A DNA stretch of 57,374 nucleotides from a virus, in IMG/VR virus record IMGVR_UViG_3300006805_000034, positions 1 through 57,374 of that record. One strand, given 5' to 3'. Below, in pieces: positions 1,204 through 53,687 of this stretch (within the stretch, counting starts at the first letter, position 1; each line of letters starts with the position of its first letter). A model generated the notes under the pieces. That model made no database searches. It had not been told where the DNA came from and worked only from the letters and a program-made list of their open reading frames with translations. Position numbers and translations under genes: made by a program.

Positions 1204-1204
1204 A

Positions 1205-2375: not shown

Positions 2376-2399
2376 CGGGGAGATGGGGGGATGGGATGA

Positions 2400-2621
2400 T
2401 TATCGGGCGTAGAAGTCGTGTTCGAGGTGGTGGTGAATGAAGCGGGGAGCGCTGAAACGGGCGCTGGCGTGGGGGCAGTAGCGGTAACGGGAGTCATCGG
2501 TGTCGCCGTGGAATTCGAGGCAGTCGCAAGGAATGTTCCAGGGCTCGCCATCGAAGGGCCCGCCGAGCAGCACGACGACCTGCGTGGCGTTGAACGGGGG
2601 CTGGGCGTGGAGGTCGTTCAT
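2400..2621 (-). CDS. Small hypothetical protein with LLGGPFDGE motif
   Basis: 73 residues from MNDLHAQPPF. VVVLLGGPFDGEPW is a motif seen in small uncharacterised phage and bacterial proteins. It is followed by a Cys-containing segment (IPCDC) and a His/Tyr/Arg-rich tail. The upstream in-frame Met falls in repeat DNA, so this ATG is preferred. The stop is embedded in a TAATCATCCCA motif just before the next gene's ATG. Confidence 0.55.
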   Translation of the reverse strand: MNDLHAQPPFNATQVVVLLGGPFDGEPWNIPCDCLEFHGDTDDSRYRYCPHASARFSAPRFIHHHLEHDFYAR

Positions 2622-2695: not shown

Positions 2696-2785
2696 GAGGA
2701 AGGGCAAGGTTTGGGACCAGAACCGGAGTCTGTTTTTTGTGAGTTTTTGCGTGTTTTGCGGCCATGAATGGGATGAGTCTTGGGA

Positions 2786-3285: not shown

Positions 3286-3495
3286 TCAGAGGTCGAGCTG
3301 GCGGGCTTCGTCGAGGGTGGGCACGTTGAGGCGGTCGAGGAGGTTGCTGATGTGCTGGTGGATGGATTGATAGCTGATGCCCAATGCGGCGGCGGCTTGC
3401 TTGCGGGTGAGATTGGTGTTTTTGAAGAGGGAGAGGACTTCCTGCTGGCGCTTGGTGAGCGGGAGGCGGGCGGCGCGGCGGATGGGGAGTTGCAT
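3286..3495 (-). CDS. LuxR-type helix-turn-helix regulator
   Basis: 69-residue stand-alone DNA-binding domain. LTKRQQEVLSLFKNTNLTRK and QAAAALGISYQSIHQHISNL, then LDRLNVPT, match the four-helix GerE/LuxR or sigma-70 region 4 pattern, including the typical start LT.RQ.EVL. It has no receiver or ligand domain and lies among early genes, so it is probably a small phage transcription regulator. The frame call is strong; the target is unknown. Confidence 0.75.
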   Translation of the reverse strand: MQLPIRRAARLPLTKRQQEVLSLFKNTNLTRKQAAAALGISYQSIHQHISNLLDRLNVPTLDEARQLDL

Positions 3496-3814: not shown

Positions 3815-3836
3815 AGGCTGGTAAAAAATGGGATGA
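3815..3836. repeat. Family G repeat
   Basis: GGCTGGTAAAAAATGGGATG, directly upstream of the small putative zinc-binding protein and running into the stop-embedded motif of the next gene. Confidence 0.6.
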
Positions 3837-4085
3837 CTATTGAGGGCCGGAACGGTAGTGGGTGTCCCAGGCGGAGCCGGTGGGGGCTTCGAGGGCGGTG
3901 ATGTGGCCGAGGGTTTCGAGTTCGTAGAGATGCTGCTGCACTTCTTGGGAGGGGAGATTGCAGTGCATGGAGATGTCGTCGGGATCAAAGCCGCCGACGG
4001 AGGAGGCGACGTAGCCGCGCACGAGCTTTTGCAGGGCGGTGAGAACGGCGGCTTGGTCGGTGGTGAGGGAGGTGTTTGTACTCAT
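3837..4085 (-). CDS. Small winged-helix-like protein
   Basis: 82 residues. Residues 8-65 (LTTDQAAVLTALQKLVRGYV, then FDPDDISMHCNLPSQEVQQH and LYELETLGHITAL) read like a winged helix: helix, helix, recognition helix after LPSQEV, then a wing. Probably a small transcription regulator. The stop TAG is the first codon of a TAGTCATCCCA motif. Confidence 0.55.
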   Translation of the reverse strand: MSTNTSLTTDQAAVLTALQKLVRGYVASSVGGFDPDDISMHCNLPSQEVQQHLYELETLGHITALEAPTGSAWDTHYRSGPQ

Positions 4086-5261: not shown

Positions 5262-5798
5262 ATGACCCCCTTTTCCAAAAAACTTGATTCTTTATTAGCT
5301 GTCCGTGGGACAGCAGCCAGGCTGGCGGAGTTTTCCGGCGTACCTGCCTCTCATTTGTCCAAGCTGTGCAAGGGGGTACTGCCGACGCCGGAAATGTTGA
5401 ACAAGCTTTTGCCTTTTTTTGAAGCGGCGGATGCGGACGGGCTTGTGGTGGAGTATTTGCTGCTTCACCGCCCAGCAAATGCACGGAATGTGCGTATTTT
5501 GGTGAGTGAAAGTGACCCACTGCAGGACCGCCTGGAAAAAGCGATTGCTTACTTGGACCCGCAAACGAGGGAATCTCTGGCCTGCATTGTCGAAGCAGTG
5601 AATCGTTCTCCTGAAAAGGGATCTGCGGCCATGCGCGGCGTGGGCGGTTTGTTCAATGCCCAAAACACGATGCCGTTGCATCGCAGCCGCATGGAATTGT
5701 TGCCTGCGGTTCTTTCCTCTGAGGACACGAACGCGCCGCCGGTGGCGGAGGTGCGGCAGGAGGTGGTGTATGAGAAGCCTTTACCCAAGAAAAAGTGA
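5262..5798 (+). CDS. XRE-like phage repressor
   Basis: 178 residues from the ATG at 5262 (MTPFSKKLDSLLAVRG); the upstream open frame is AT-rich operator DNA. Residues 5-55 form a helix-turn-helix: TAARLAEFSGVPASHLSKLC with recognition helix SHLSKLCKG, followed by PTPEMLNKLLPFF. The C-terminal half has a helical stretch (LQDRLEKAIAYLDPQTRESL) and a Lys-rich end, with no obvious peptidase dyad of the LexA type. It faces inverted-repeat operators in its own leader, the usual layout for a lysogeny repressor. The next gene starts inside its stop (TGATG). Confidence 0.75.
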   Translation: MTPFSKKLDSLLAVRGTAARLAEFSGVPASHLSKLCKGVLPTPEMLNKLLPFFEAADADGLVVEYLLLHRPANARNVRILVSESDPLQDRLEKAIAYLDPQTRESLACIVEAVNRSPEKGSAAMRGVGGLFNAQNTMPLHRSRMELLPAVLSSEDTNAPPVAEVRQEVVYEKPLPKKK

Positions 5799-6091
5799 TG
5801 AATGACGCTGCTTTGACTTCTCTTGAACCGGAGCCGGCTAAAGCCGGGACTACACTACTGGGAGCCGGAGTGGCGCTGGAGCCTTGGCTGCGGCTGTGCG
5901 CGGGGAATGGGGAGTTGCTGGCGAATTATGATCGGCTGCGGGGCACGAACCTGGGTGGCCGGGGGACGCCCATTGATCGGATGATTGATGAGGCGACGGG
6001 AAAGCTGGAAGAGGAGGCGCTGGGGTTCTTTGACTGGTGCCGGGAGATGTTTGAGCGGCTGCAGTGGGAGGCGGCGGCGGCGGATGGATAG
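5798..6091 (+). CDS. Hypothetical protein with in-frame element A
   Basis: 97 residues, translationally coupled to the repressor (TGATG overlap). Residues about 9-25 (LEPEPAKAGTTLLGAG) are the translation of a family A palindromic element, so the N-terminus has been remodelled by a repeat. The remaining part (ANYDRLRGTNLGGRGTPIDR then MIDEATGKLEEEALGFFDWC) looks like a small conserved phage protein, possibly regulatory. Its stop TAG starts a TAGTCATCCCA motif. Confidence 0.6.
   Translation: MNDAALTSLEPEPAKAGTTLLGAGVALEPWLRLCAGNGELLANYDRLRGTNLGGRGTPIDRMIDEATGKLEEEALGFFDWCREMFERLQWEAAAADG
5827..5869 (+). repeat. Palindromic element A (in frame)
   Basis: CCGGCTAAAGCCGG core with the conserved flank GACTACACTACTGGGAG; translated as EPAKAGTTLL. 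Confidence 0.85.
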
Positions 6092-6117
6092 TCATCCCAG
6101 ATGGAGGAAGATTTTTG

Positions 6118-7139: not shown

Positions 7140-7173
7140 TTAGTCACCCCATTTTTTAACTCAGCATTCCCCG

Positions 7174-9466: not shown

Positions 9467-9510
9467 TGGACATGCGTTGACGGGGGCTGGGGCTGGGGTG
9501 ACTGCTGGGC

Positions 9511-12629: not shown

Positions 12630-12677
12630 TTTTGTCATTCCGAACAGTCATCCCAGAACCTTCATTCTCATCACGTT

Positions 12678-21494: not shown

Positions 21495-24400
21495 GCAGAC
21501 ACCCACGGAAACCGACCCGAAAAGAGGGGTGATGTTTACCAACGGCACGGGCACGGGCAAAACCTTTACCGGGCTGGGCATCATCAAACGGTTTGAGATG
21601 ATGGGCAAAGGCCGCGTATTGATCGTGGTGCCGAGCCAGCAGAAAGTCACCGACTGGAAGAACGAAGGCGCGCGGGTGATGGTCAAGGTGAACCCGCTGA
21701 ACGACACCAATGACGTGGGAGAGGATGTGGTGGCGACGACCTACGCCAATCTGCGCGACAACTGGAAGCTTCAAAGCGAGCCGTGGGACCTGGTGGTGTA
21801 CGATGAAAGCCACTACCTTTCCAGCAATGCCCAGGGCAACGAAGGAGCCAACATACGCGCGCATGAACTGGCCACTAACAAGCCCGGATGGAACCAGATG
21901 GAGAAATGGACGCAGGCAGTGCTGGGACCGCGCCCCAGTCGCCGGGAAGATGAAGCCGCAGCCAAGCGCTACGACAACGCCGCCGAGCAGGCCAGCAAGC
22001 AGATTCAGTACCTAGCCGACACCGCCCCGGACACCAAGGCCGTGTTTTTGAGCGCGACGCCTTTCGCGTATCACAAAAACCTCAAATACGCCGACGGCTT
22101 TCTTTACTCGGCCCCGCCGCGCTCGGACAGCAGCGCCTACAACACGCCGCAGGGCTTTGAGCGCTATTTGGTGGAGAATTTTGGGTACACGATGCGGACC
22201 AACCGCCTCAACTCGCCACCGCCTGAAGTGGACACGGGATTGATGGAACGCGAGTGGGCGGAGCGCCAGTTTCAGCAGGGCAGCATGAGCGGACGCATGA
22301 TTGACGTGCCGTATGATTACAGCCGTGAATTTGTGCTGCTGAACTCGGAAACGGGCCGCCTGCTGGATGAAGGATTCCGCAGTTTGTCGGGATGGGACCC
22401 CGACACGCGGGACCGCTGGCCGGAGCTGACAAGTGCCTTCAACAGCTACTGGCGCAGCAGCAGCAGCGGGTACACAAAGATGATGCAGTTCATGGAGTCC
22501 ATCAAAGTGGCGGACGCCATTGAGCGCATGCAGCAGCACCTTGACATGGGGCGCAAGATTGTGCTGTTCCATTCCTACAACAACGCCGATCCGCTGCACC
22601 CGTTCCAGTTGAGCTATCTGGCACCGGCTTACCGCAATGATCCTGCCGAGCAGATCGGGGAACGGCAGATGCTGGAGCAGCAGACCCGCGACTGGATGTC
22701 GGCGCACCCCAAACTGGTGCAGATGAATTTCCGACGTTTGCAAAATCCTCGTGCCCTAGTGGCGCAGGAGTTTGGGGACCGGGTGAAATTCTTCAACGGG
22801 GAAGTGGGCAAGAAAGACCGCGCAGCGGCGATCACGCAGTTTAACGACGACAACAGCGGCGTGGACATCTTCATGGTGCAGACCGATGCCGGCAAGGAAG
22901 GTATCAGCCTGCATGATACCACGGGCAAAAAGCAGCGCGTGCTGATGAACGCCAGCCTGCCGGTGAAACCGACTGATGCCATCCAGGAGGAAGGGCGCAT
23001 TTACCGCATCGGCGTGCTTTCGAATGCCATCCAGGAGTATCTGGTGCTGCACACCAACATGGAGCGCAGCGCCTTCGGCAGCAAGATCAGCCAGCGCACG
23101 GGCACCGTGGAAAACATGGCCTTAGGCCAGATGGCGCGCACGCTGACGGATTCCTTTAAATCCGGCTATCTGAACGCGCACGGCGAAGATCCGAGCCGGG
23201 AGCAGGGGCTTGGCGGCAAGGAGCAGGACAAGGCCGAGCTGCTGGGGGACGACTTCACCCGCGCCAAATCCTATTACTTTGGACGCATGAAGAAAACCAG
23301 CCGCAACAAGGCGGCTGAAGGGCAGGACTATTTTGCCACCCCGGAGCCGCTGGGGCTGGTGATGGTGCGCATGCTGGGAGCCAAGCCGGGCATGGACCTG
23401 CTGGAGCCGAGTGCCGGGCACGGAGCCATTGGGCGGTGGTTTCCTGACACCACGGCCAACAAGTTCATCGAGCCGAGTCGTACGCTGGCGGATGAACTGC
23501 GCATCAAGGTGGCGTCTGGGAAGGTGGAAGTGCAGCCTTTCGAGGATCTGCACATCATGAACAAATTCGACGGCGTGGCGATGAACCCGCCGTTTGGCAC
23601 GGCGGGCAAGCTGGCCATTGAGCACCTGGCCAAGGCCAGCAGGCACCTGCGCCAGGGCGGGCGCATGGTGGCCATCATTCCCGAAGGGCCGGCGATGCAG
23701 AAGCGCTTTGATGCCTGGCTGGAGGGCGAAGGGGCTGACATGCACCTGCGCGCATCCTACGGGTTGCCGACAGTAACATTTGAACGGGCGGGCACGAGCG
23801 TGAAAACGCGGTTGGTGGTGCTGGATAAAGCCGACCTGTGGACGGTGAGGCATGAGCCTGAAACAGGGACGTATGCCGCCTATGACAGTTTTGGCGAAAA
23901 GCGCCGGTCATACAAAGGTGGGGAGAAAACGTTGCGGGATCTGGCGGAAACCAATCCTGAGTTTATTGGCTGGCAGGATCAGGCGAATTTCCAAAATCGC
24001 AGCCCCCGCGAGATTGAGGCCGAGAACGTGAAGGAATTCTTTGACGAGATCGAGAACCTTGAAGCACCGCCGCGCATCGTCAAAACGGTGGCGACGGGGG
24101 CTTTGGATTCGGAAACTACATGGACGCCGCCTTATCCAGGTGCGCCCAATCCCAGCATTGCCGAGGCAATGCAAAACATGCAGCAGCAAAACCAAAGAGT
24201 GCCGAGCATGGCCCCTGCGGCACCCGTAGTCACCCCAGCCGCCGCTGCTTCCAATCCTTACGAGTCCGCGCAGACGCTGCACGCGAAAAAGGGCGTGATG
24301 ACCTACGTGGCCAAGATGTCGCGCCGCTTGAGTGATGCCACCTACCAGAGCGAGAAGAACCGCGCCAAGAAGTTTGGCGGGTACTACTCCGCCTTCAAAG

Positions 24401-31266: not shown

Positions 31267-31313
31267 TCAGCACGAAAACGCTTTCGGGTCAAGGGTGAAG
31301 ATTCATCCCAGAC
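31267..31313 (+). repeat. Element O: hairpin plus ATTCATCCCAGACA, copy 1
   Basis: CACGAAAACGCTTTCGGGTC hairpin, then a TCATCCCAGACA box. An inverted copy lies at 47170-47217. Confidence 0.7.
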
Positions 31314-31354: not shown

Positions 31355-31379
31355 GGACAACGTACGTGGCGGCGGAGGC

Positions 31380-31410
31380 ATGCGTTGACGGTGGCTGGGT
31401 AGTCACCCCA
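31380..31410 (+). promoter_or_regulatory. ATGCGTTG / TAGTCACCCCA composite leader of portal gene
   Basis: ATGCGTTG at 31380-31387, a 12-base gap and TAGTCACCCCA at 31400-31410, ending 12 bases before the portal ATG. The same pair precedes the genes at 34275 and 39401. Regulatory role inferred from position. Confidence 0.5.
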
Positions 31411-31422
31411 TAATGCGGGGTT

Positions 31423-33768
31423 ATGCCTGATGACCGCCGCGTGATGTTTGAGACGACCCTGCCCATCGACCGGGACATGGAAACGCGCATGGTGGAGTAT
31501 TTTTACAATCTGGCGCTGAAGATCCACCAGGACATGGGCTACGCGGGATCGCCGGGGGATTACGGCTTTGACACGTGGCTGTGGAAACGGCTTTCGTGGA
31601 TGAACCGCTACCACAACGATTTCAGGGATCGGCTGTGGCTGCCGCCGGAGCGGGACGGGGTGCTGTTTCGGATGTGCAACAAGTCGCTGAACATGCCCAA
31701 GCAGTTTGTGGGCGGGTATCACGCAGCGCTGACCAGCAGTCTGGACGGCACGGCGTTCATTGAGGTGCGCGGCGAAGGCGGTGAGGATGAGAATCCGGCG
31801 CTGCCGCTGTTCCAGCGCTACCTGCGGGCCAAGGCGGAACGTTTGATGCTGGGGCGGCTGCTGAAAAACGAGAGCGTGCTGATGTGCCTGAACATTGGCC
31901 AAAGTGTGTGCCAGGTGGTGCAGAAGCGCGAGCTGCGCACTGATCCGCGGCAGGTGCGCTGCGTGCGCGACCTGCGCCAGGAGGGAGATGTGCCGCTGAA
32001 AGACAGCACGGGCAAGCTGGTGACAGAACTGGACGAATGGATACCCAACCCAGCGAATCCGCGCCAGAGCATCCTCAAGCGAGACACGCGCGTGTTTGTG
32101 GAGTATCCCGAGGGCACGGTGCCGCATGCGCCGACGGAGCTGACGGCGCGCACGTACACCGTGGATCATGTGATCAAGAATCACCAAGGCGCGGCAATTG
32201 AGTTCATTCACCCGGGCGATTTCCTGTGGCAAATCAACAAGCCGAGCCTCGATGCCAGCGATTTGGTGGGGCACTTCACCATGATGGCGGTCGATGACCT
32301 GTTTGACTGCTTTGACCGCAGCCGCATGACCGAAGCCGGGAAAAAGTTTGAGAAGCGATACAGCACTGCCGCGCAGTCGGGCAATCAGGGAGACCCGACC
32401 AACCAGGAGATGCCGATGCCGAACATGGGGGAATCCCCGGACAGCACCAACGTGGTGATCGATCCCGGCGCGCTGGCACCGCGCAAGTTTCTGTTCTTGT
32501 ATTCAAGGTATGACTGGAACAAGGACAATCGGAGAGAGCGCGTGTTTTGCGTCATTGACTGGGAGACGCGCCAGCCGGTGGCGTATGACCCCACGAGCCT
32601 CGTACTGGAAAGCGACGTGCGGCTGCACCCGTATTTCATGCCGGTGATCGGCAAGGTGAACTTCCGCGCCTATGGCGAGGGCTTGTACGAGCAGCACGAC
32701 GACCTGAGCCAGTATGTGGATGCCTGCTGGTGTCGCATCCAAATCGAGCAGCAATCGAGCGGCAAGATCACGGCGTTTGATCCCAATGCCCTGGAACAGA
32801 CCTGGGCGGGTGGCAGCCTGAAACTGCGGGGCCCGACGCTGTGGCGGAAGCGCAACCCGGCGCAGAGCATCAACGAAATCATCGACGTCAAGGTGGTGCC
32901 GGCGGAGACGGCGGAGCTGCGCGAGAACATGGCGGTGGGCATGCAGACGATGACCAGTCGCGGCGGCGGCATGACGGTGGACCAGGCCGAAAGCAGCGGG
33001 CTGGGGGCGGCGAACACGCTGGGCGGGCTGCAACTGCTGGAGCGCCAGCGGGGGAGAGCGCAGAACAGCACGGCGCAGGACCTGAAGGACAGTCACCAGG
33101 ATCTGCTGCGGGTGTGGGCGCAGGTGGAACGCGACTGCTTTGACATGGAGTTTGCCAAGGAACTGTTTGGGGATTTGCTGGTGGACGTGGAGGTCGCACC
33201 GCCTGGTCCGCAGCAAACGATGGAGACCGCGCAGCCGGAAGCTGCGGGCGAAGTCATCACCCCCGACGGCATGCCGGTAGAAGAACCGGCCGCGATGGGG
33301 CTGCAGAAGATGCAGGTGCCGGCGGCGCAGGTGCTGCAGCAGTTCTTGAAGACGGTGAAGCCGGATTCGCTGGCCAACATGGTCAACATCGTGCTCACGG
33401 ACAGCACCGAGAGCGAAGAGATCGCTCAGACGGAAAACCGGAAAAAGATCATTCTGGACTTCCTGCAACTGGGCAGCGCCGAGGCGATGCAGGCGACGGC
33501 GGCGGAGTTCACTGACCTGCTCAAGCGCAACGGCAGCAAGGATGCGGAGAAGACCATTGCGCAGGCGATCAAGGCGCAGAATCAGAAGGAAAAGCAGGCG
33601 CAGCAGAAGGCGATACAGCAGCAGGCGCAGCAGCAGCCGGGCGGGCTGAATGCCGCGCCGGGAGGACCGGCACAGCAGGACCCGACGAGCGAAGCGCCGA
33701 TGACGGGGCGACCGGAGAGCATGCAGGAGTTTAATCCGGGGCCGTGGCCGGTGGAGCCGATGGTGTGA
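31423..33768 (+). CDS. Portal protein (P22-type)
   Basis: 781 residues. Long portals of this kind sit at the capsid vertex as a dodecamer, bind the terminase and open the channel for DNA. The N-terminal half is mixed alpha/beta (MVEYFYNLALKIHQDMGYAG; WKRLSWMNRYHNDFRDRLWL). The wing and clip region includes FLFLYSRYDWNKDNRRERVF and LHPYFMPVIG. The stem-type segment QSSGKITAFDPNALEQTW is followed by VDQAESSGLGAANTLGGLQL. The Gln/Lys-rich C-terminus (KEKQAQQKAIQQQAQQQPGG) resembles a barrel helix and tail. Size and order are right for podovirus portals. Confidence 0.8.
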   Translation: MPDDRRVMFETTLPIDRDMETRMVEYFYNLALKIHQDMGYAGSPGDYGFDTWLWKRLSWMNRYHNDFRDRLWLPPERDGVLFRMCNKSLNMPKQFVGGYHAALTSSLDGTAFIEVRGEGGEDENPALPLFQRYLRAKAERLMLGRLLKNESVLMCLNIGQSVCQVVQKRELRTDPRQVRCVRDLRQEGDVPLKDSTGKLVTELDEWIPNPANPRQSILKRDTRVFVEYPEGTVPHAPTELTARTYTVDHVIKNHQGAAIEFIHPGDFLWQINKPSLDASDLVGHFTMMAVDDLFDCFDRSRMTEAGKKFEKRYSTAAQSGNQGDPTNQEMPMPNMGESPDSTNVVIDPGALAPRKFLFLYSRYDWNKDNRRERVFCVIDWETRQPVAYDPTSLVLESDVRLHPYFMPVIGKVNFRAYGEGLYEQHDDLSQYVDACWCRIQIEQQSSGKITAFDPNALEQTWAGGSLKLRGPTLWRKRNPAQSINEIIDVKVVPAETAELRENMAVGMQTMTSRGGGMTVDQAESSGLGAANTLGGLQLLERQRGRAQNSTAQDLKDSHQDLLRVWAQVERDCFDMEFAKELFGDLLVDVEVAPPGPQQTMETAQPEAAGEVITPDGMPVEEPAAMGLQKMQVPAAQVLQQFLKTVKPDSLANMVNIVLTDSTESEEIAQTENRKKIILDFLQLGSAEAMQATAAEFTDLLKRNGSKDAEKTIAQAIKAQNQKEKQAQQKAIQQQAQQQPGGLNAAPGGPAQQDPTSEAPMTGRPESMQEFNPGPWPVEPMV

Positions 33769-33784
33769 GGGAATCCAGAATTTT

Positions 33785-33855
33785 TGCAAGGGAATGAAGG
33801 AGCAAGGGAATGGTCAGAACCGGATTAAGGCAAAAAAATGGGCGGTAAAAGATGA
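33785..33855 (+). repeat. E and G elements
   Basis: E (33785-33812) and G (33828-33855) fill the gap after the portal gene. Confidence 0.75.
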
Positions 33856-33869
33856 ACTGATTTAAAATT

Positions 33870-34217
33870 ATGAGCGCGATCAATCCTTTGAATCCGGTAT
33901 TCCCGAAGACTGCAGACGGGGGGGCGGCAGCGCCTTTTTTGCCGGCGGTGCAGGCCTTGGACAAGGCGCAACGGCGGGCTTCGATGTTTGCGCAACTGGG
34001 GGCGGACCCGCTGTTTCAGGCGGAGTTTGTGGATGGGTTTTTGAAGGAGGCTGAAGAGCAGGCGCTGGCCGATGTGGCGACGGCGACGATTGAGGATCTG
34101 GCACGCGCGCGTGACCAGTGGGTGAACACCAAGGACCTGCGGAAACGATTGTGTGACGAGATGGCGGATGCGCCGGCGCAGATCAAACGGCTGCAAAGCC
34201 CGGCGGCGACGACGTGA
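33870..34217 (+). CDS. Hypothetical virion-region protein
   Basis: 115 residues, mostly helical: FLPAVQALDKAQRRASMFAQ, then ADPLFQAEFVDGFLKEAEEQ and ALADVATATIEDLARARDQW. It ends with a hydrophilic tail. Between portal and tail genes it could be a small connector or chaperone. Family not recognised. Confidence 0.6.
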   Translation: MSAINPLNPVFPKTADGGAAAPFLPAVQALDKAQRRASMFAQLGADPLFQAEFVDGFLKEAEEQALADVATATIEDLARARDQWVNTKDLRKRLCDEMADAPAQIKRLQSPAATT

Positions 34218-34230
34218 TCCCGGCGGAGCC

Positions 34231-34260
34231 ATGCGTTGCGTTTTCCGAAGAATCATCCCA
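34231..34260 (+). promoter_or_regulatory. ATGCGTTG / GAATCATCCCA composite leader
   Basis: ATGCGTTG at 34231-34238, an 11-base gap and AATCATCCCA ending at 34260, 14 bases before the ATG at 34275. Confidence 0.5.
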
Positions 34261-34274
34261 TACATGGTGCCGCT

Positions 34275-34574
34275 ATGCCCGCCTCCGCCAATATCACCAC
34301 TTCGGGCGTCATTGCCTTCACGCTGCCGCCAGGCGCGTGGGGCGTGAGGATCGCCAATGAAAGTGGCACGTTGATCCGGCGATTGCTCGGCGCGGCACCC
34401 AGCACGAGCGGGACCGACTTGGGACTGCCACTGGCAGCAGGAGCGAGTGAAAACATTTTATTTCAAACCGCTTTAAGACAGCCGCTGGCGGTGGGGGCCA
34501 TCCATGCCGGGAGCGGCACCCAAACACTGACTTACGAAGTCATTACCCAACCAACTGCGGCCATTTCCAACTGA
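34275..34574 (+). CDS. Small beta-rich virion protein (paralogue of next gene's N-terminus)
   Basis: 99 residues from MPASANITTSGVIAF. It aligns end to end with residues 1-95 of the next gene (MPTSANITTAGVIAFTLPVG versus MPASANITTSGVIAFTLPPG), so the two arose by duplication. Alternating hydrophobic and polar residues suggest a small beta sandwich, suitable for a capsid decoration or tail-attachment domain. Confidence 0.65.
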   Translation: MPASANITTSGVIAFTLPPGAWGVRIANESGTLIRRLLGAAPSTSGTDLGLPLAAGASENILFQTALRQPLAVGAIHAGSGTQTLTYEVITQPTAAISN

Positions 34575-34578
34575 CGTC

Positions 34579-35943
34579 ATGCCCACCTCCGCCAACATCA
34601 CCACCGCCGGCGTCATTGCTTTCACCCTGCCCGTGGGAACGTGGGGAGTGAGAGTGATCAATGAAAGCGACACGTTGATTCGTCGGCTTTTGGGACAACC
34701 CGCGACGACCTCTGGTACCAGTTTGGGGCTGCCGCTGGCGGCGGGGGCGGGGGAAACCCTGGTGTTTAGGCAGCCGCTTAAGCAGGACGTGGACTACTGC
34801 GCCATCCATGCCGGCACCGGCGACAAAACCCTGACGTACGAAATCATCACGCAACCGACCCAGGGCGGCACGGGCCCCAGTTCCAGCGCAGGAGGCAGCG
34901 GGGCGAGCAATGCGTTGCTTTTGGCGGGTGGAACGGCTTCTACGCTGGGATCGCTCACAGCGGCCACGGCGGCCACTGGCGGGCTGTTTTATGGCACGCA
35001 GGGAGGCGCAGACCGCAAGTTCACGCTGACGGCAGCCGGCGCGGCGCTGGTGGAAGCGGCCAGTGCGTCCGCGCAACGGACTGCTCTGAATTGTCCTGGG
35101 CTTGCGTCTGCCAACATCTTCTCCGTGTCCGGCGCGGCATCGACACCGGCGCTCTCACTGACGGGAACGCCTTTCACGGGCGGGACGGCGACCACGACGA
35201 AGCCGCTGTTCTCCATTGAGCCGACTGGGACGACGAGCACGGGCTGGTCGACCTCTGGGACGATGCTGGGGGTGAATGCGGCGAGTGGGTTTGCGGGGAA
35301 TTTGGTGGACATTCAGAAGAATGGTGTGTCGCGGCTTAGCATCCCAACCACAGGGTATGTTAACTTTACGACGCCAACCACGACAAACTCAGGTTTGTTT
35401 CTTACCACCAATGGGTGGGCCAACGGGCACAGTGTAGGCATTACGTTTGGTGATACAACGTTGTTCAATGCCATTATTTGCCCGTTTGCGGCCCCTATGA
35501 GTGTGGATCACTATTATGGCGTAACGACGGTTGGTATTTCACCAGGTGGTAAGCTGGGCTTTAACACGGCATCAGCAAATTCAATTGCTTTTGGCACGTC
35601 TGCGGATGCACTGCTCATTCGTAAAGCCGCTGCAAGTTTTGGCTTTGGCATCGCATCCGCAACACCCATCACCCAGACCTTTGGCGGAGCTGATGGCAGC
35701 GGAACTAACATCACGGGTGGCACACTAAATATTGGCACTCGCGGCACCGGCACGGGCACGGGAGGCAGGATCAACCTGCAATTTCATGCGGCTGGATCGT
35801 CAGGTAGCACTCTCGGAACTTTAGTGGACGTGCTTTCGATTGTGGGCGTTGGCCGCGTCCGCATCACCGGCATACCCACTTCTGCCGCTGGGCTTTCAAC
35901 GGGTGATATTTACAGCAACGCGGGAATCCTCACCATTGTTTAA
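34579..35943 (+). CDS. Tail fibre/spike-like protein
   Basis: 454 residues. Residues 1-95 are the attachment-type domain shared with the preceding gene. A Gly/Ser/Thr-rich repetitive shaft follows (SSSAGGSGASNALLLAGGTA, later GGADGSGTNITGGTLNIG). The C-terminal motif DVLSIVGVGRVRITGIPTSA with GLSTGDIYSNAGILTIV is one I associate with podovirus tail proteins. Likely binds the host surface or decorates the virion. The start lies 4 bases after the previous stop. Confidence 0.7.
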   Translation: MPTSANITTAGVIAFTLPVGTWGVRVINESDTLIRRLLGQPATTSGTSLGLPLAAGAGETLVFRQPLKQDVDYCAIHAGTGDKTLTYEIITQPTQGGTGPSSSAGGSGASNALLLAGGTASTLGSLTAATAATGGLFYGTQGGADRKFTLTAAGAALVEAASASAQRTALNCPGLASANIFSVSGAASTPALSLTGTPFTGGTATTTKPLFSIEPTGTTSTGWSTSGTMLGVNAASGFAGNLVDIQKNGVSRLSIPTTGYVNFTTPTTTNSGLFLTTNGWANGHSVGITFGDTTLFNAIICPFAAPMSVDHYYGVTTVGISPGGKLGFNTASANSIAFGTSADALLIRKAAASFGFGIASATPITQTFGGADGSGTNITGGTLNIGTRGTGTGTGGRINLQFHAAGSSGSTLGTLVDVLSIVGVGRVRITGIPTSAAGLSTGDIYSNAGILTIV

Positions 35944-35947
35944 CGCC

Positions 35948-36226
35948 ATGAACATCACACTGACTCAAGAACAACTTGCCGGGCTTGTTTATGGCACGGC
36001 AAAACGCAATGAGGCCAACCCTAATGCTCCCGCAATGTCGGTAGAGCAGTTTGCTATTGACCTGCTTGGCGTGCAGGCTGCCACTTTCGCGGCAGAAAAA
36101 GACGCTGAGGAGCTGGCCGCCATGGCTGCCAATGAGCAACTAATGGCGTTGGGTCGCGCAGTGATGGAGCAGCCGGAAAAGCTACCCGCTGTGGTGGTGG
36201 CGGTGACGGGCATCCTCGAATCTTGA
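35948..36226 (+). CDS. Small helical hypothetical protein
   Basis: 92 residues from MNITLTQEQLAGLVYGTAKR. Helical and acidic, with NPNAPAMSVEQFAIDLLGVQ and an Ala/Glu-rich helix. Tightly packed 4 bases after the fibre gene. Possibly a fibre-assembly chaperone by position; no family recognised. Confidence 0.6.
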   Translation: MNITLTQEQLAGLVYGTAKRNEANPNAPAMSVEQFAIDLLGVQAATFAAEKDAEELAAMAANEQLMALGRAVMEQPEKLPAVVVAVTGILES

Positions 36227-36231
36227 ATTTT

Positions 36232-36534
36232 ATGCACACACTCAAACTGACAAACGGGCTTTGCCTGCTGATCCATAACCTGCTGTTTGTCCCTGAGACG
36301 TTCAAGACGCCGAGTGAGGTGCTGACGGCGGGCCTGCTGGTGGAGCAACTGAACTGCCCGGTGGTGACTGCACAACAAGCAGATGATCCCGCTTGGAATG
36401 GTGCTAACCTGCCTGATTTAAAACTCAGTGAAAAACAGCGGGACCTGTTAAAATTGGCGGTGGAAAAACATGTGGCAAAGCTGCCCCCAAATGGCACAAC
36501 GGTGTCACTGCTGAAGCAACTCGGGTTTGAGTAA
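36232..36534 (+). CDS. Small hypothetical protein
   Basis: 100 residues from MHTLKLTNGLCLLIHNLLFV; a TTG at 36223 is an alternative start. The C-terminal half resembles a helical pair (DLKLSEKQRDLLKLAVEKHV AKLPPNG). It follows its neighbour within 5 bases. Family unknown. Confidence 0.6.
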   Translation: MHTLKLTNGLCLLIHNLLFVPETFKTPSEVLTAGLLVEQLNCPVVTAQQADDPAWNGANLPDLKLSEKQRDLLKLAVEKHVAKLPPNGTTVSLLKQLGFE

Positions 36535-36546
36535 CTGCCCCCCCCG

Positions 36547-36939
36547 ATGAAATTCCAGATTGATCCTTCGCAGTTTGAAATGCCGGTGTCGCTGGCGACT
36601 TCCATTGTTGGGGCGGGATTGAGCGCGTTGGGACTCGTTGCGGCGACGCTGGCGGGATGGTGGGCAAAGTTTGCGACGATCGACCCGCAGGAGCTGGCGA
36701 TTCAGCCGCTGCATGTGGTGCTGATTGGTTTTATCATTGCCCTGGCGGCGTTCATTGTGCTGATTCTGCGGGCGGTGTGGGGCAAGGGCATTGAGACGGT
36801 GAACCGCTTCAGTGATGCGCTGAACAATCAGGCGGCGCAGATAGCGCAATTGATCGAGCTGCAGACGAAGCGGGTGGAGAAATTGGAGACGCTGAGTTTT
36901 GACGCGCTGAGGGAGGCGGCGGAAACCAGAACACGCTGA
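36547..36939 (+). CDS. Holin candidate (two-TM protein with cytoplasmic helix)
   Basis: 130 residues. Two hydrophobic helices (about 15-40, LATSIVGAGLSALGLVAATL; about 57-77, VVLIGFIIALAAFIVLILRA) are followed by a charged helix (LIELQTKRVEKLETLSFDAL). It precedes an endolysin and esterase, the expected position for a holin. The last residues ETRTR and the TGA are supplied by a family B element, so the C-terminus has been altered. Confidence 0.6.
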   Translation: MKFQIDPSQFEMPVSLATSIVGAGLSALGLVAATLAGWWAKFATIDPQELAIQPLHVVLIGFIIALAAFIVLILRAVWGKGIETVNRFSDALNNQAAQIAQLIELQTKRVEKLETLSFDALREAAETRTR

Positions 36940-37000
36940 AGCGTGAACAACAAACCCGGAACCGGAACCGCCTGAAGGCGGGACTACAATACGAAGAGAC
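36929..37000 (+). repeat. B and A elements; B supplies a stop
   Basis: B (36929-36954, read ACA-CGC-TGA) ends the holin candidate. A with core CCGCCTGAAGGCGG follows (36959-37000) and abuts the next start. Confidence 0.85.
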
Positions 37001-37008
37001 TGAAACTT

Positions 37009-37209
37009 ATGAAACGGACTTGCTACATTGCGATCAATATGATTCGGACGAATCCGGGGGAAGCGGATGGGTGGACGGATCGGTTTGTGACGTTGATCAA
37101 CACGCGGCTGCCTGATGGGGTGGTGAAGGACCACAGTGATGATGCGCAGGGGCATTCGACCTGGCTGCAGCGTGGGGTGCGGTTTGAGGGGCTGATGCAG
37201 GCTATTTAA
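37009..37209 (+). pseudogene. Internally deleted copy of the hydrolase at 37929
   Basis: 66 residues. The N-terminus MKRTCYIAINMIRTNPGEAD with GWTDRFVTLIN and the C-terminus VVKDHSDDAQGHSTWLQRG match the two ends of the 226-residue hydrolase downstream. The central about 160 residues, including the GHSNG nucleophile, are missing while the frame is kept. It cannot be a working esterase. It may be a remnant or a small derived protein. Confidence 0.7.
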
Positions 37210-37238
37210 AAACATGATCAGGAGGACCAGCAGACTTT

Positions 37239-37784
37239 ATGAATAACATACCTGCAAATTATGCATGGCTGAGTGCCCAAGGGATCTTGCCGAAAACTAT
37301 CCAGGAGGGACTAAAGCTGCTGGGTGTGGCTGAGGTAGTGGGCAAGGGGAGTAACCGGACGATCCTTGACTGGAGGGATGAGCTGAATCTGGCCGGGGTG
37401 AAGATTGCGGGGTTTTCTGACGATGACATTCCGTGGTGCGGTCTGTTTGCGGCGATTGTGGCGCATCGTGCCGGGAAAGTGGTGGTGAAGGAGCCGCTGT
37501 GGGCGCGCAACTGGGTGCAGTTTGGGGTGGCGGCTGGGGCTGCGGCTCTGGGGGATTGTCTTGTGTTTGTGAGGCAGGGCGGCGGGCATGTGGGGTGGTA
37601 TGTGGCCGAGGATGACACGGCCTACCATGTGCTGGGAGGTAACCAGGGTAACCGAGTGAGCATTACCCGGATTGCTAAGGCGCGCTGCATTGCGGTGAGG
37701 AGGCCGGTGTACCGTGTGCCGCCGGGGAGTGTGAGGCCGTATCTGGTCCTGGCGGCGGGGGTGCTTTCCGCGAATGAGAGTTGA
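37239..37784 (+). CDS. Endolysin-like protein (TIGR02594 / NlpC-CHAP type)
   Basis: 181 residues. Catalytic features of the TIGR02594 phage-lysin group: DIPWCGLFAAIVAHRAGK with the nucleophile Cys about 66, GGGHVGWYVAED with His about 118, and YHVLGGNQGNRVSI. Expected to cleave a peptide or amide bond in peptidoglycan at lysis. AGGAGG lies at 37220-37225, 13 bases upstream of the ATG. It sits between the holin candidate and an esterase. No signal peptide is seen, so release probably depends on the holin. Confidence 0.75.
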   Translation: MNNIPANYAWLSAQGILPKTIQEGLKLLGVAEVVGKGSNRTILDWRDELNLAGVKIAGFSDDDIPWCGLFAAIVAHRAGKVVVKEPLWARNWVQFGVAAGAAALGDCLVFVRQGGGHVGWYVAEDDTAYHVLGGNQGNRVSITRIAKARCIAVRRPVYRVPPGSVRPYLVLAAGVLSANES

Positions 37785-37786
37785 AC

Positions 37787-37923
37787 CCGGAACCGGCTAA
37801 AGCCGGGACTACATTACGAAGAATCCAGAACCCAGAACACGCTGCTGCGCAGCCCCTGAAAGGGAACCGTAAACAACGAACAAAGAACCAGAGCCGGTTA
37901 AAAACCGGCGCTCCCAGTACGGA
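37787..37923 (+). repeat. Repeat cluster A, B-long, C
   Basis: A (37787-37825), long B variant with an extra internal hairpin (37836-37882) and C (37889-37923) fill the gap before the hydrolase ATG. Confidence 0.85.
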
Positions 37924-37928
37924 AACTT

Positions 37929-38609
37929 ATGAAACGCACGGTTTACATTGCGATCAATGGCATTCGGACCAATCCAGGGGATGCGGAAGGGTGGACGGAT
38001 CGGTTTGTGACGTGGGTGAATACAGTACTGCCGGATGGGGTGTATGGGGAGAAGTTTGAGTATTACACCTCCGCGCTGCTGCGTGGATTCCGGCAAAGAC
38101 TGCGAGCAAAACAGATCGCAAAGATGGTGGGGTATTACACGCGGGCGGGCTATCGCGTGGTGCTGGTGGGTCACAGCAATGGGTGCGACTTGATCGCGCG
38201 AGTGCTGCACTTGGCAAAACCGGAATCCGACGAACTGCCAGCCGACCTCAAAAAAGACTTAAAGATCGACTGCGCGCATTTGATATCGCCGGCGGCGGAT
38301 GAAGAGAGTTTTGCCGACGCTGTCCGCAACAAGCTGGTGAGGTGCATCCACATCTACGGCAGCAAGAACGACGGCGCGCTGAGATTTGCCCAGGTGACCC
38401 GCCCGCTGATCGGCTGGCTGGGCCTGGGCTATGGATCGATGGGACTGCGAGGTCGAGAGTTTGCGGCGATGTTTCCCGATGTGGTGCAGGATCACAGTGA
38501 TGACTCGCACGGACATTCGACGTGGATGCAACGTGGGCCAAACTTTGAGGAGATGATGCTGGCTATTTCTGCGCACGATTTTGCCGACCAAAAAACTTTG
38601 ACCCTATGA
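37929..38609 (+). CDS. Alpha/beta-hydrolase (esterase/lipase-like)
   Basis: 226 residues. VVLVGHSNGCDLIARVLHL is the nucleophile elbow (G-H-S-N-G). Later Asp and His in VQDHSDDSHGHSTWMQRG are candidates for the triad. N-terminal strand MKRTVYIAINGIRTNPG. In the lysis region such an enzyme could attack membrane lipids or a mycolate-like or O-acyl envelope bond; the substrate is unknown. The stop overlaps the ATG of a 32-residue membrane peptide. A deleted paralogue lies upstream at 37009. Confidence 0.75.
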   Translation: MKRTVYIAINGIRTNPGDAEGWTDRFVTWVNTVLPDGVYGEKFEYYTSALLRGFRQRLRAKQIAKMVGYYTRAGYRVVLVGHSNGCDLIARVLHLAKPESDELPADLKKDLKIDCAHLISPAADEESFADAVRNKLVRCIHIYGSKNDGALRFAQVTRPLIGWLGLGYGSMGLRGREFAAMFPDVVQDHSDDSHGHSTWMQRGPNFEEMMLAISAHDFADQKTLTL

Positions 38610-38704
38610 GCACCCTGGAAATCGTCGCTCGCATTGTTCTGGCCATCGTCAGCATGGTTGGGATCGTGGTGGGTATTTTCTGGATGGTGCGGCCACGGAA
38701 ATAA
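38606..38704 (+). CDS. 32-residue membrane peptide coupled to hydrolase
   Basis: MSTLEIVARIVLAIVSMVGI followed by VVGIFWMVRPRK: one transmembrane helix with a basic tail. ATGA overlap with the hydrolase stop implies coupled translation. Could be a second holin, a pinholin or a membrane partner for lysis; inferred from position only. Confidence 0.6.
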   Translation: MSTLEIVARIVLAIVSMVGIVVGIFWMVRPRK

Positions 38705-38729
38705 CCAATGACTTCGGAATCACAATATT

Positions 38730-39347
38730 ATGGCTTTCATTCTCTCCGACGCGCCTTCCATCGTCCGCTGTTTGGTGCGGGCCGAGTTCACTCAAAACCT
38801 CAAGAAAGACCACGGGAAGTACCTGCAAGCGCACATCTTGGGCATTCGCTGCCAGGAAGCCGCAAGCCTCCAGTTTCAGGTACGGTTCGATGAGCCGGCG
38901 CTGGCTGGGGCGATGTTTTGCTTGCCAATCCAAGCGCTGTGCTGGAAGCCGTGCGACATGCCCAATGTTGAACTGATTCAGCCGTGGGACACGTTCAGCA
39001 GTCATTTCACGGTGCATGAGTTTGGCTTGTGGAAACGAGGGAATGCGCAGCTTTTGAATGTAAGGGGCGACGCAAAGTACCCCGAGCGGCTGCCAGCGCG
39101 GTATCTCTGGACGCTTGACTTTGAAGGCAACGCACTGGCCAATGACTTCGAGCAGCACAAGCAACTCCATTTTATTCAGGTAGAAGAAGGCTGGTTTGCA
39201 GCCGTGCCCAATAATCGGGTGCTGAGTGTAGATTCAGCTTTTGCGAGTCCCTGCGAAACGCTGCCCCGGTTTGAATCGCTGGAGCATCTTTTTTGCGCTG
39301 AGTGCCGGATCGGTGAACCGGAACTACTGACAGAGACGGCGGCGTAG
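38730..39347 (+). CDS. Hypothetical phage protein
   Basis: 205 residues with many aromatic and Cys residues: MAFILSDAPSIVRCLVRAEF, QAHILGIRCQEAASLQFQVR, IQALCWKPCDMPNVELIQPW and ARYLWTLDFEGNALANDFEQ. Likely a compact beta-rich fold. Located between lysis and scaffold genes. No family recognised. Confidence 0.65.
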   Translation: MAFILSDAPSIVRCLVRAEFTQNLKKDHGKYLQAHILGIRCQEAASLQFQVRFDEPALAGAMFCLPIQALCWKPCDMPNVELIQPWDTFSSHFTVHEFGLWKRGNAQLLNVRGDAKYPERLPARYLWTLDFEGNALANDFEQHKQLHFIQVEEGWFAAVPNNRVLSVDSAFASPCETLPRFESLEHLFCAECRIGEPELLTETAA

Positions 39348-39349
39348 AA

Positions 39350-39390
39350 ATGCGTTGCGGCGGATGCGGTAGGCCTGAATAATCATCCCA
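39350..39390 (+). promoter_or_regulatory. ATGCGTTG / TAATCATCCCA composite leader of scaffold gene
   Basis: ATGCGTTG at 39350-39357, a 22-base gap and TAATCATCCCA at 39380-39390, 10 bases before the ATG. The gap is about one helical turn longer than at 31380 and 34231. Confidence 0.5.
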
Positions 39391-42356: not shown

Positions 42357-42367
42357 TAGTCATCCCA
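42357..42367 (+). promoter_or_regulatory. TAGTCATCCCA motif after capsid gene
   Basis: One base after the TGA stop, followed by an ATGCGTTG box at 42380-42387. This is the reverse order of the composite leaders. Confidence 0.5.
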
Positions 42368-42390
42368 TGCGGCGCAGAAATGCGTTGTTG

Positions 42391-42424
42391 AGCGGCGCAG
42401 GCGGGGCAACCTGTCTGCGCCGCT
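42391..42424 (+). terminator. Hairpin terminator after capsid gene
   Basis: AGCGGCGCAG / CTGCGCCGCT, 10-bp perfect stem with a 14-base loop, followed by TCTTTGCT. A likely transcription attenuator that would raise capsid mRNA over the downstream genes. Confidence 0.65.
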
Positions 42425-42461
42425 TCTTTGCTGGCTATTTCACCTTCAACCCCGATTTGCC

Positions 42462-47077: not shown

Positions 47078-47217
47078 GATGGCCTCAAAAAGGCGCAAGA
47101 ACCGGAGAAAAAACCGGAGCCGGATTTTTTGACAGGATTGACAAGATTCCAGAATTTCAGGATTCCAGAAGTGTGTCTGGGATGAATAATGGGCGTTGAC
47201 ACGAAAGGGTTTTCGTG
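47078..47217 (+). repeat. H, F and inverted O elements
   Basis: H (47080-47115), F (47129-47170), then element O in inverse orientation (47170-47217): a TGGGATGAATA box and a 7-bp hairpin CACGAAA/TTTCGTG. Confidence 0.75.
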
Positions 47218-47236
47218 GAGAGTGAGGGACCCGATT

Positions 47237-48528: not shown

Positions 48529-48580
48529 TAATCACCCCAGACAACCGAACCTGCGGGCAGGAGTGCCCGCGCTCCCTTTT
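48529..48580 (+). repeat. TAATCACCCCA motif and D element
   Basis: Motif at 48529-48539, D (GCGGGCAGGAGTGCCCGC) at 48551-48580, upstream of the glycosyltransferase fusion. Confidence 0.8.
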
Positions 48581-50340: not shown

Positions 50341-50344
50341 GAAT

Positions 50345-50935: not shown

Positions 50936-50944
50936 GGTTTGATT

Positions 50945-51698: not shown

Positions 51699-52079
51699 CT
51701 ATGCCTGAACTTTGAGAGCCTTGAACTCGCGCAGGATCTGCTGGAGTTCATCGAGTTCGAAGCCTTTTTTGCTGGTAAAGTGCAGTCTTGTCACGCCATC
51801 CGGATGGGTGAAGATGCGCCAGCGGCGGGAGGCGGGCAGAATGAGCTCGACACGGGCCTTGGGGCCTTTGGGACGAGGGGAACGACCTGCGGCACGATTG
51901 CGGGCAAGCTGCTTGGCGCGGCGTGGAACCAGTTTTTTCTGATACTTTTCAAACTGTTGCTGCAGGTGCTCGGCGCGGTGCTTGGCTTCGTAGCGGCGCT
52001 CGGCCTCTATCTGTTTCTCGGTGCGTTTGCGGGCGGGCTGTTTCTTGGCGGTGGGCTTTTTCTTGGGAGTGGCGGCCAT
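51699..52079 (-). CDS. Small basic protein
   Basis: 126 residues from MAATPKKKPTAKKQPARKRT. Lys/Arg-rich histone-like N-terminus, a helical middle (EKQIEAERRYEAKHRAEHLQ) and a small C-terminal domain (RRWRIFTHPDGVTRLHFTSK, ELDELQQILREFKAL). Likely DNA- or RNA-binding. Its ATG directly follows a TAGTCACCCC motif. It is the last gene of the leftward block and faces the glycan genes across a 51-base convergent gap. Confidence 0.65.
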   Translation of the reverse strand: MAATPKKKPTAKKQPARKRTEKQIEAERRYEAKHRAEHLQQQFEKYQKKLVPRRAKQLARNRAAGRSPRPKGPKARVELILPASRRWRIFTHPDGVTRLHFTSKKGFELDELQQILREFKALKVQA

Positions 52080-52089
52080 GGGGTGACTA
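52079..52089 (-). promoter_or_regulatory. TAGTCACCCCA motif at start codon
   Basis: The motif ends in the ATG of the basic protein; the same arrangement occurs at 53666-53676. Confidence 0.5.
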
Positions 52090-53164: not shown

Positions 53165-53666
53165 TTACAGAAGGACGAGGCGTCCAAGGTCTTGGCATGT
53201 GGACAGTTTTTGGTGGGCGGCAGATCCATAAGCAATGAGGCAAGAAGGTCCTCCGCTGTTGTGCCCGTTGGGTGCTGGACTGCCGTCGGGACGGTGAAAA
53301 GTAAGCCGTCCTTTAATGAAAAGAATACTTGTGGCAAAGGGCCAGACATGTTCAAAAAAAGCGCGGGTGTCTGTGCGTGCAAAGACCAAGGCAATGCCAT
53401 TGCGGTGCAACGCCATGCGGCCAAGCCACATGCCAAGGCTGCGGCCATAAGGAGGATTACACCAAGTGAACCCCTGCCAGAGATGGAGTAGTCCGTTGTC
53501 GGTTTCTGTGATCATCTTGGCAGCGGTGGGCCATGGCTGGGGATCGCAGGCGCAGGGATCAAGATCAAACGGGCCGAGACGATCAAGAATCCATTTGGGT
53601 GTGATCCATGAATCGGTTGTGATACCAGTCCGTCGGGTGTTGTTGGGAGGAGCAATTGAACTCATG
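53165..53666 (-). CDS. dam-like: DNA N6-adenine methyltransferase (phage Dam type)
   Basis: 166 residues from MSSIAPPNNTRRT; the upstream extension reads the motif region. TPKWILDRLGPFDLDPCACD and later FTWCNPPYGRSLGMWLGRMA give the DPPY-like catalytic motif (NPPY) of the short phage N6-adenine methyltransferase family. ALVFARTDTRAFFEHVWPFA and FIKGRLTFHRPDGSPAPNGH are also typical. Expected to protect phage DNA from restriction or affect regulation. The TAGTCACCCC motif precedes its ATG. Confidence 0.85.
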
Positions 53667-53687
53667 GGGTGACTATTGGGAAAAAGG

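What the first reader, a model, noticed from the sequence alone, without database searches (positions are those of the whole stretch)
31380..39390. Composite leader ATGCGTTG - gap - TARTCAYCCCA before portal, tail and scaffold genes
The two boxes occur together 10-14 bases before the ATGs at 31423, 34275 and 39401, with gaps of 12, 11 and 22 bases. The third gap is about one helical turn longer. A lone ATGCGTTG lies at 9472 before the terminase genes and at 12207. All mark virion genes, which suggests a late-gene control element rather than a random repeat.
Basis: partly seen in the sequence, partly recalled or inferred. Interest (0 to 1): 0.6.

Follow-up and report, generated by a model that had tools for sequence, protein, structure and literature searches.

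The report
Dispersed gene-border control boxes in phage
A virus of a little-studied group of freshwater bacteria carries about twenty copies of one short directional DNA signal at the borders of its genes, plus six copies of a second signal before its late genes, which looks like a genome-wide switchboard that is separate from its ordinary lysogeny repressor.

Summary
The boxes are real, but the composite is a local view of two wider site families. Box B, CYSARTARTCAYCCCAK (core TARTCAYCCCA), occurs 12 times exactly in the window (chance 0.06) and 11 times in the only near-complete relative; with a profile there are 20 and 21 sites. They lie in non-coding gene borders (16 of 20, P about 1e-13), follow the direction of transcription (17 of 20 and 19 of 21) and serve early and late genes alike. 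Box L, GGCGKAGRMATGCGTTG, has six sites, all late, all conserved; five of six lie within 25 bases of a box B. Both families are near background in genomes of the probable host family (Verrucomicrobiaceae). Two conserved reversed B sites, one next to the terminase genes, argue for recognition of DNA rather than RNA. The arrangement resembles stoperators of Cluster A mycobacteriophages, but the presumed immunity repressor differs between the two phages while box B does not, so another, conserved phage protein probably reads it. Best reading: box L marks late promoters; box B is bound by a phage-encoded regulator that blocks or paces transcription. Not shown: binding, start sites, the reader protein.

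The parts
1197..1207 (-). box B TAATCATCCCA; TAA is the in-frame stop of the leftward ORF 1205-1513
   Evidence: exact; profile 29.0; conserved in G001
2392..2402 (-). box B TAATCATCCCA, 16 nt before leftward ORF 1500-2375
2769..2779 (-). box B variant GACTCATCCCA, 6 nt after the stop of 2786-3040
   Evidence: profile 17.9; conserved in G001
3829..3839 (-). box B TAGTCATCCCA; TAG is the stop of the winged-helix gene 3837-4085
6089..6099 (+). box B TAGTCATCCCA; TAG is the stop of 5795-6091
   Evidence: G001 has GAGTCATCCCA
7141..7151 (+). box B TAGTCACCCCA between 6184-7128 and 7174-8004
9472..9479 (+). box L core ATGCGTTG before terminase small subunit
   Evidence: conserved in G001 and in contig L185
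9494..9504 (-). reversed box B CAGTCACCCCA between box L and the terminase start; exact TAGTCACCCCA in contig L185
12211..12218 (+). box L core ATGCGTTG before 12243-12629; no box B within 35 nt
12645..12655 (+). box B CAGTCATCCCA before 12678-13292
   Evidence: identical in G001
24227..24237 (+). TAGTCACCCCA inside ORF 21409-29232; no G001 counterpart seen, may be chance
31300..31310 (+). weak box B GATTCATCCCA, 100 nt upstream of the site at 31400
   Evidence: profile 9.7; same core in G001
31371..31387 (+). box L GGCGGAGGCATGCGTTG
31400..31410 (+). box B TAGTCACCCCA, gap 12 from box L, 12 nt before ATG 31423
34222..34238 (+). box L GGCGGAGCCATGCGTTG
34250..34260 (+). box B GAATCATCCCA, gap 11, 14 nt before ATG 34275
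39341..39357 (+). box L GGCGTAGAAATGCGTTG
39380..39390 (+). box B TAATCATCCCA, gap 22, 10 nt before ATG 39401
42357..42367 (+). box B TAGTCATCCCA, 1 nt after the stop of 40790-42355
   Evidence: conserved in G001 and L061
42371..42387 (+). box L GGCGCAGAAATGCGTTG; its ATGCGTTG begins 12 nt downstream of box B
42390..42425 (+). 16-bp-stem hairpin followed by a T-rich tract (TTCTTT; TTTTTT in the relatives), probable intrinsic terminator
   Evidence: fold -33.6 kcal/mol, z -5.0
47178..47188 (-). reversed box B variant TATTCATCCCA abutting the start of 47189-48289
   Evidence: profile 20.1, 22.3 in G001; conserved
48529..48539 (+). box B TAATCACCCCA between 48303-48518 and 48590-50308
52079..52089 (-). 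box B TAGTCACCCCA; last A begins the start codon of 51699-52079
53665..53675 (-). box B TAGTCACCCCA; last A begins the start codon of 53165-53665
5262..5798 (+). presumed immunity repressor (weak HTH_3 match); different HTH region at the same locus in G001
3286..3495 (-). 69-aa GerE / sigma-70 region 4-type HTH protein, conserved in G001 (66%); candidate reader of a box
3837..4085 (-). 82-aa winged-helix protein (DprA_WH), 72.5% identical in G001; second candidate reader
36..827 (+). tyrosine-type integrase, so the phage is probably temperate

Best explanation
The window is most of the genome of a probably temperate tailed phage of Verrucomicrobiaceae with two dispersed families of protein-binding DNA sites. 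Box L (GGCGKAGRMATGCGTTG, six sites) marks the late promoters: its TTG lies where a -35 would be, and it would be used by host RNA polymerase with or without a phage activator. Box B (CYSARTARTCAYCCCAK, about twenty asymmetric sites at gene borders, nearly all pointing with transcription) is bound by a phage-encoded regulator. At late promoters it sits in or beside the spacer and -10 region, as an operator would; elsewhere it sits just behind stop codons or at start codons, where a bound protein could halt or pace elongating polymerase, as stoperators do. Shown: number, place, orientation, conservation, phage-specificity and pairing of the boxes, and the difference between the repressors. Inferred: protein binding, the promoter role of box L, the blocking role of box B, and which protein reads it.
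For: Box B: 12 exact copies against 0.06 expected, 11 in G001, none for the pattern read backwards in either; 17-bp asymmetric consensus from 32 sites. Profile hits of 14 bits or more: 20 in the window, against 0-3 in each of 20 third-order simulations, 12 in all. 16 of 20 lie in the 9.5% of the window that is non-coding, P 1.5e-13. Orientation with transcription: 17 of 20 and 19 of 21. Three other repeat families in the same window stay wholly, and a fourth in 16 of 17 copies, on the + strand whatever the direction of transcription, so the flip is particular to box B. At 15 orthologous pairs, core positions 1-10 agree in 149 of 150 letters, flanks in 212 of 330 (pairs chosen because both match). 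Box L: six sites orthologous in both phages, five of six within 25 nt of a box B (P 1.5e-5), -10-like hexamer at spacing 17-18 at 3 of 6 sites (same three in G001) against 5 of 66 control TTGs. Phage-specific: TARTCAYCCCA 92 times in about 111 Mb of 18 host-family genomes (37 for the reversed control), 0.8 per Mb against 209 per Mb here; prophage-like stretches in two such genomes share genes at up to 83% protein identity with the window but hold no profile hit of 13 bits or more in 40 kb each. Repressor difference: outside a 33-residue C-terminal tail BLASTP finds no similarity, and the upstream repeats differ.
Against: No binding or transcript data exist. Box B has no dyad and no -10 at fixed distance. 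Two conserved sites point against transcription (9494-9504, 47178-47188), which a strictly polar road-block would not use. Box L at 12211 has no box B, and box L at 9472 and 42380 has no -10-like hexamer. The role of 5262-5798 as immunity repressor rests on a weak HTH_3 match (E 0.002, below Pfam's cut-off) and on position. Only one near-complete relative was found; the others are fragments, and one of them (L182) has the same site set as G001 in the stretch it covers.
Confidence: 0.45

Rival explanations
1. Box B is a true stoperator in the Cluster A sense: the phage's immunity repressor binds all the sites and silences the prophage.
For: Number (about 20), asymmetry, place in short intergenic gaps over stop and start codons and orientation with transcription match published descriptions of L5 and relatives (passages read).
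Against: In Cluster A the stoperator motif changes with the repressor. Here the presumed repressor differs between the two phages outside a C-terminal tail, as do the upstream repeats, while box B is the same. Two conserved sites are reversed.
Confidence: 0.12
2. Box B is an RNA- or translation-level element like the start-associated sequences of Cluster K mycobacteriophages, aiding initiation or stop-start coupling.
For: Sites lie close to start codons (10-32 nt before it at 8 of 14 same-direction non-coding sites, overlapping it at 2) and to stop codons; my gene caller's coarse scan found no Shine-Dalgarno-like word before many genes; some TAR are in-frame stops.
Against: Distance to the start runs from overlap to 94 nt and one site stands 393 nt before the next curated gene; conserved reversed sites exist, one exact in L185; the leaders at 9465, 31375, 34225 and 39345 do not fold better than shuffles.
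Confidence: 0.13
3. Box B is itself a promoter element for a phage sigma-like factor, so each site starts a transcript; the 69-aa sigma-region-4/GerE-like protein would be the factor.
For: Orientation with transcription; the GerE/sigma region 4 protein is phage-encoded and conserved.
Against: No conserved downstream hexamer among 32 sites; several sites overlap stop or start codons; a terminator lies about 20 nt downstream of the site at 42357.
Confidence: 0.15
4. Box B is one more neutral or selfish interspersed repeat in a repeat-rich genome.
For: Other words are as frequent in both phages, e.g. GCAARGGAATG (14 and 16) and GGTRAAARATG (10 and 11).
Against: Those families keep one strand in both arms and many copies lie inside ORFs; box B flips with transcription and is almost wholly non-coding. 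Only about 17 bp are conserved.
Confidence: 0.1
5. Box L is the start of tiny leader peptides (ATG CGT TGN = Met-Arg-Cys or Met-Arg-stop), an attenuation device, not a promoter part.
For: Reading from each box L gives MR*, MRC*, or short MRC peptides at 11 of 12 sites in the two phages; the twelfth runs to 38 residues.
Against: The GGAG lies only 2 nt from the ATG; peptide lengths differ between orthologues (MR* against MRCGGGCLG*, 38 residues against 5); conservation covers the 9 bases before the ATG.
Confidence: 0.05

Closest known systems
Stoperators of Cluster A mycobacteriophages (L5, Bxb1, TipsytheTRex)
   Same: 20-30 asymmetric 13-14 bp sites across the genome, predominantly in one orientation relative to transcription, in short intergenic gaps, some in promoters (passages read in PMC6550527 and PMC9283540).
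   Different: Sequence and host phylum differ; consensus is 17 bp; the motif does not follow the presumed immunity repressor; two conserved reversed sites; paired with a second, late-only box.
SAS and ESAS of Cluster K mycobacteriophages (TM4, Adephagia)
   Same: 11-19 copies of a 13-bp asymmetric repeat near gene starts, about half with a second element just upstream (passages read in PMC3203893): the same composite layout.
   Different: SAS are confined to the half with non-structural genes; here both arms carry box B. The ESAS element is a pair of 17-bp inverted repeats; box L is a single asymmetric site, and at 42380 it lies downstream of box B.
Activator-dependent late promoters of P2-like phages (Ogr, TGT-N12-ACA)
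   Same: A short conserved site before each of several late operons (passages read in PMC3931495).
   Different: Different sequence, no dyad, six sites; no Ogr-like protein was looked for or seen.

Membership tests
Cluster A stoperator system | 20-30 similar asymmetric sites spread over the genome | tested here: met
   20 in the window, 21 in G001
Cluster A stoperator system | sites predominantly oriented with transcription | tested here: met
   17 of 20 and 19 of 21
Cluster A stoperator system | sites in short intergenic spaces and promoters | tested here: met
   16 of 20 non-coding; promoter placement not shown
Cluster A stoperator system | site sequence follows the immunity repressor | tested here: not met
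   presumed repressors differ, boxes identical; assumes 5262-5798 is the repressor
Cluster A stoperator system | monomeric two-domain repressor binds the site and halts elongation | not testable with these tools
   needs protein and transcription assays
Cluster K SAS/ESAS | short asymmetric repeat just upstream of start codons | tested here: inconclusive
   true of many sites, but distances run from overlap to 94 nt and once 393 nt
Cluster K SAS/ESAS | imperfect 17-bp inverted repeats upstream of about half the sites | tested here: not met
   box L is a single asymmetric site in the 12 copies listed (by eye)
P2-type late promoters | TGT-N12-ACA site before each late operon | tested here: not met
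   not seen in the conserved part of the listed box L copies (by eye only)
P2-type late promoters | zinc-finger activator of the Ogr type | not tested
   no dedicated search; 30 window ORFs were scanned against Pfam and 27 against PHROGs, not all ORFs

The most novel reading that the evidence does not exclude
The phage has a second, immunity-independent genome-wide control layer: a small conserved GerE/sigma-region-4-type or winged-helix protein reads about twenty oriented gene-border boxes and stops or paces polymerase at each, so that phages with different immunity repressors share one silencing or timing code.
Probability: 0.25. Interest if true: 0.7.

Novelty: new variant of a known kind. 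Interest (0 to 1): 0.5.

Why it matters
Dispersed polar sites that halt transcription are known in phages of Actinobacteria, where they belong to the immunity repressor. An independent case in a Verrucomicrobiaceae phage, with sites that stay constant while the presumed repressor differs, would separate genome-wide silencing from immunity specificity and make that testable. My searches found no regulatory work on phages of this phylum.

Tried and rejected
Composite scan of viral contigs: 41 stretches; 2 belong to G001, the other 39 look unrelated. By eye 34 of these share one coding-like context (GGTTGCCATGCGTTGCARTAG-like) and 5 are single cases. Not evidence for the composite elsewhere.

Longer box L scan: 33 stretches. 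Those of this phage group by alignment and context are L014, L029, L184 (all G001), L182 and L185; the other 28 have no profile hit of box B.

More distant relatives by alignment scans of the 521-aa and 781-aa proteins gave only G001. Named phages: no match for either protein; terminase matches 220 records at under 60% identity, the listed ones about 25%, among them Vibrio phages and P27-like phages. These records were seen as table rows only; none was opened.

Host element: rejected, near background in hosts. Of the 22 hits in 68 genomes no two share a contig. Chi-like role: the same counts argue against it. RNA leader folds: no better than shuffles except the terminator. No Rfam family or tRNA.

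Candidate readers in host-family genomes: the 69-aa protein matches only HTH parts, mostly of longer ORFs, at 31-47% identity; the 82-aa protein matches nothing in 68 genomes. So no co-occurrence test was possible. Contig L055, a 69% terminase relative, has neither box in 7.6 kb.

Known weaknesses: the profile was trained on the 23 exact sites, 12 of which are among the 20 window hits; two gene coordinates in the map were wrong in start or frame (10287-12043, 1205-1434), which slightly overstates coding length; the -10 test was made after seeing the sites; arm limits for G001 were set by colinearity.
Full report
What the window is. The window is a virus record of 57,374 bases. It encodes an integrase, both terminase subunits and two very long ORFs of 2,565 and 2,607 aa. 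Genes run leftward at about 0.8-4.5 kb and above 51.7 kb, and mostly rightward between. One near-complete relative was found, G001 (IMGVR_UViG_3300032315_001592, 61,922 bp), largely colinear, mostly about 75-90% identical in DNA where it aligns, reversed and permuted; about 4 kb of it has no counterpart in the window. Fragments L061, L182 and L185 belong to the same group.

Host. A hairpin repeat of the window occurs in 75 stretches of bacterial genomes, mostly titled Verrucomicrobiaceae, Prosthecobacter or Brevifollis; two come from one genome labelled Hydrogenedentes. Prophage-like stretches in two of these genomes (G017, G005) encode relatives of window genes between 34.6 and 38.6 kb, up to 83% identical in protein over a whole gene. 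The host is therefore probably a member of Verrucomicrobiaceae.

Box B. TARTCAYCCCA occurs 12 times exactly (0.06 expected) and 11 times in G001; the pattern read backwards occurs in neither. Thirty-two sites give the consensus CYSARTARTCAYCCCAK, asymmetric, with little conservation outside it. A profile gives 20 window and 21 G001 sites of 14 bits or more; 20 simulated windows gave 0-3 each. In the window 16 of 20 lie in the 9.5% non-coding part; the others are 5977, 17008, 24227 and 46178. Of 14 same-direction non-coding sites, 12 begin between 3 nt inside and 32 nt after the stop of the gene upstream; 2392 and 31400 do not. Two sites overlap a start codon (52079, 53665).

Direction. 17 of 20 and 19 of 21 sites point with transcription. 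This is not a general property of repeats here: GCAARGGAATG (14 of 14; 16 of 16 in G001), GGTRAAARATG (10 of 10; 11 of 11) and GGGACTACA (12 of 12; 11 of 11) all lie on the + strand in both arms. Box B is the family that flips with the genes.

Reversed sites. Between box L and the terminase small-subunit gene a box B points against transcription. It reads CAGTCACCCCA in the window and G001, and in L185 it is an exact TAGTCACCCCA with 25.4 bits. A second reversed site abuts 47189 (TATTCATCCCA in both phages). These favour recognition of duplex DNA.

Box L. ATGCGTTG extends to GGCGKAGRMATGCGTTG with some variation. Its six intergenic sites are orthologous in both phages, all in the late arm. Five of six lie within 25 nt of a box B (P 1.5e-5): downstream at 31380, 34231 and 39350, downstream reversed at 9472, upstream at 42380. 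At 31380, 39350 and 12211 a -10-like hexamer (CATAAT, AATAAT, TTGAAT) lies 17-18 bp from the TTG hexamer, in both phages; 5 of 66 control TTGs do as well. At 31380 the -10 follows box B, at 39350 it overlaps its first bases, which would explain gaps of 12 and 22. The promoter scan independently lists 31385-31414 with 10 of 12 matches, though it found 8 such sites where 5.3 were expected. After 42380 a strong hairpin with a T-rich tract follows, so that copy is not a simple gene promoter.

Specificity. In 18 host-family genomes (about 111 Mb) TARTCAYCCCA occurs 92 times, the reversed control 37 times; in 68 genomes the 14-base form occurs 22 times, control 7, never two on one contig. The 17-base box L with up to one mismatch occurs 31 times, control 8. 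The small excess over control in hosts is unexplained. The prophage-like stretches in G017 and G005 have no profile hit of 13 bits or more.

Who reads box B. The HTH protein at the divergent junction (5262-5798) is the natural immunity repressor, though its HTH_3 match is weak. At the same place G001 encodes a protein similar only in the last 33 residues, and the repeats in front of the two genes differ. Yet box B is the same. Proteins conserved in both phages are the 69-aa GerE/sigma-region-4-like protein (66%), the 82-aa winged-helix protein (72.5%) and the 1205-1513 protein (79%). One of the first two is my candidate; this is inference.

Comparison. Stoperators of Cluster A mycobacteriophages are the closest match in number, place and direction; the published test that motif follows repressor is not met here. 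SAS/ESAS of Cluster K share the two-element layout but not the distribution. P2-type late promoters share the late-operon logic only. I read passages, not whole papers. No paper listed treats, by title, regulation in phages of this phylum, and one search found none; a search for the box letters returned 17 papers, of which the 10 listed are unrelated by title.

Verdict. A real, phage-specific pair of regulatory site families, wider than reported; box L late-specific, box B genome-wide. Mechanism unproven.

Noticed in passing
window, e.g. 1461-1487, 3269, 16948-16974, 29267, 33786; G001: Three interspersed repeat words (GCAARGGAATG, GGTRAAARATG, GGGACTACA) lie on one DNA strand in all 36 window and 38 G001 copies, whatever the direction of transcription, and many are inside ORFs. 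A polarity linked to replication or packaging, or single-strand insertion, would fit; unexplained.
   Followed up: partly
13797-21494: The 2,565-aa ORF contains several of the hairpin and spacer repeats in open frame, so repeat units seem to have been taken into a coding sequence.
   Followed up: no
7109-55616, 16 places: The hairpin repeat ACACGCTNAAGCGTGAACAACG is a Verrucomicrobiaceae repeat; the stem word occurs 14 times in the window and not in G001.
   Followed up: partly
5262-5798 and its G001 counterpart: The two phages have different repressor HTH regions joined to the same C-terminal tail (EDTNAPPVAEVRQEVVYEKP), suggesting exchange of immunity regions.
   Followed up: partly
4150-4461 (-): Leftward gene encoding an acyl-carrier-like protein (PP-binding, E 1.4e-7), odd in a phage early region.
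   Followed up: no
48590-51647: Glycosyltransferase 9 plus methyltransferase, a second methyltransferase and an MptE-like protein in a row: possible sugar-modification genes.
   Followed up: no
36999-38042: A 124-nt stretch is repeated at 82% identity 920 nt apart, at the starts of 37009-37209 and 37929-38609, a partial gene duplication.
   Followed up: no
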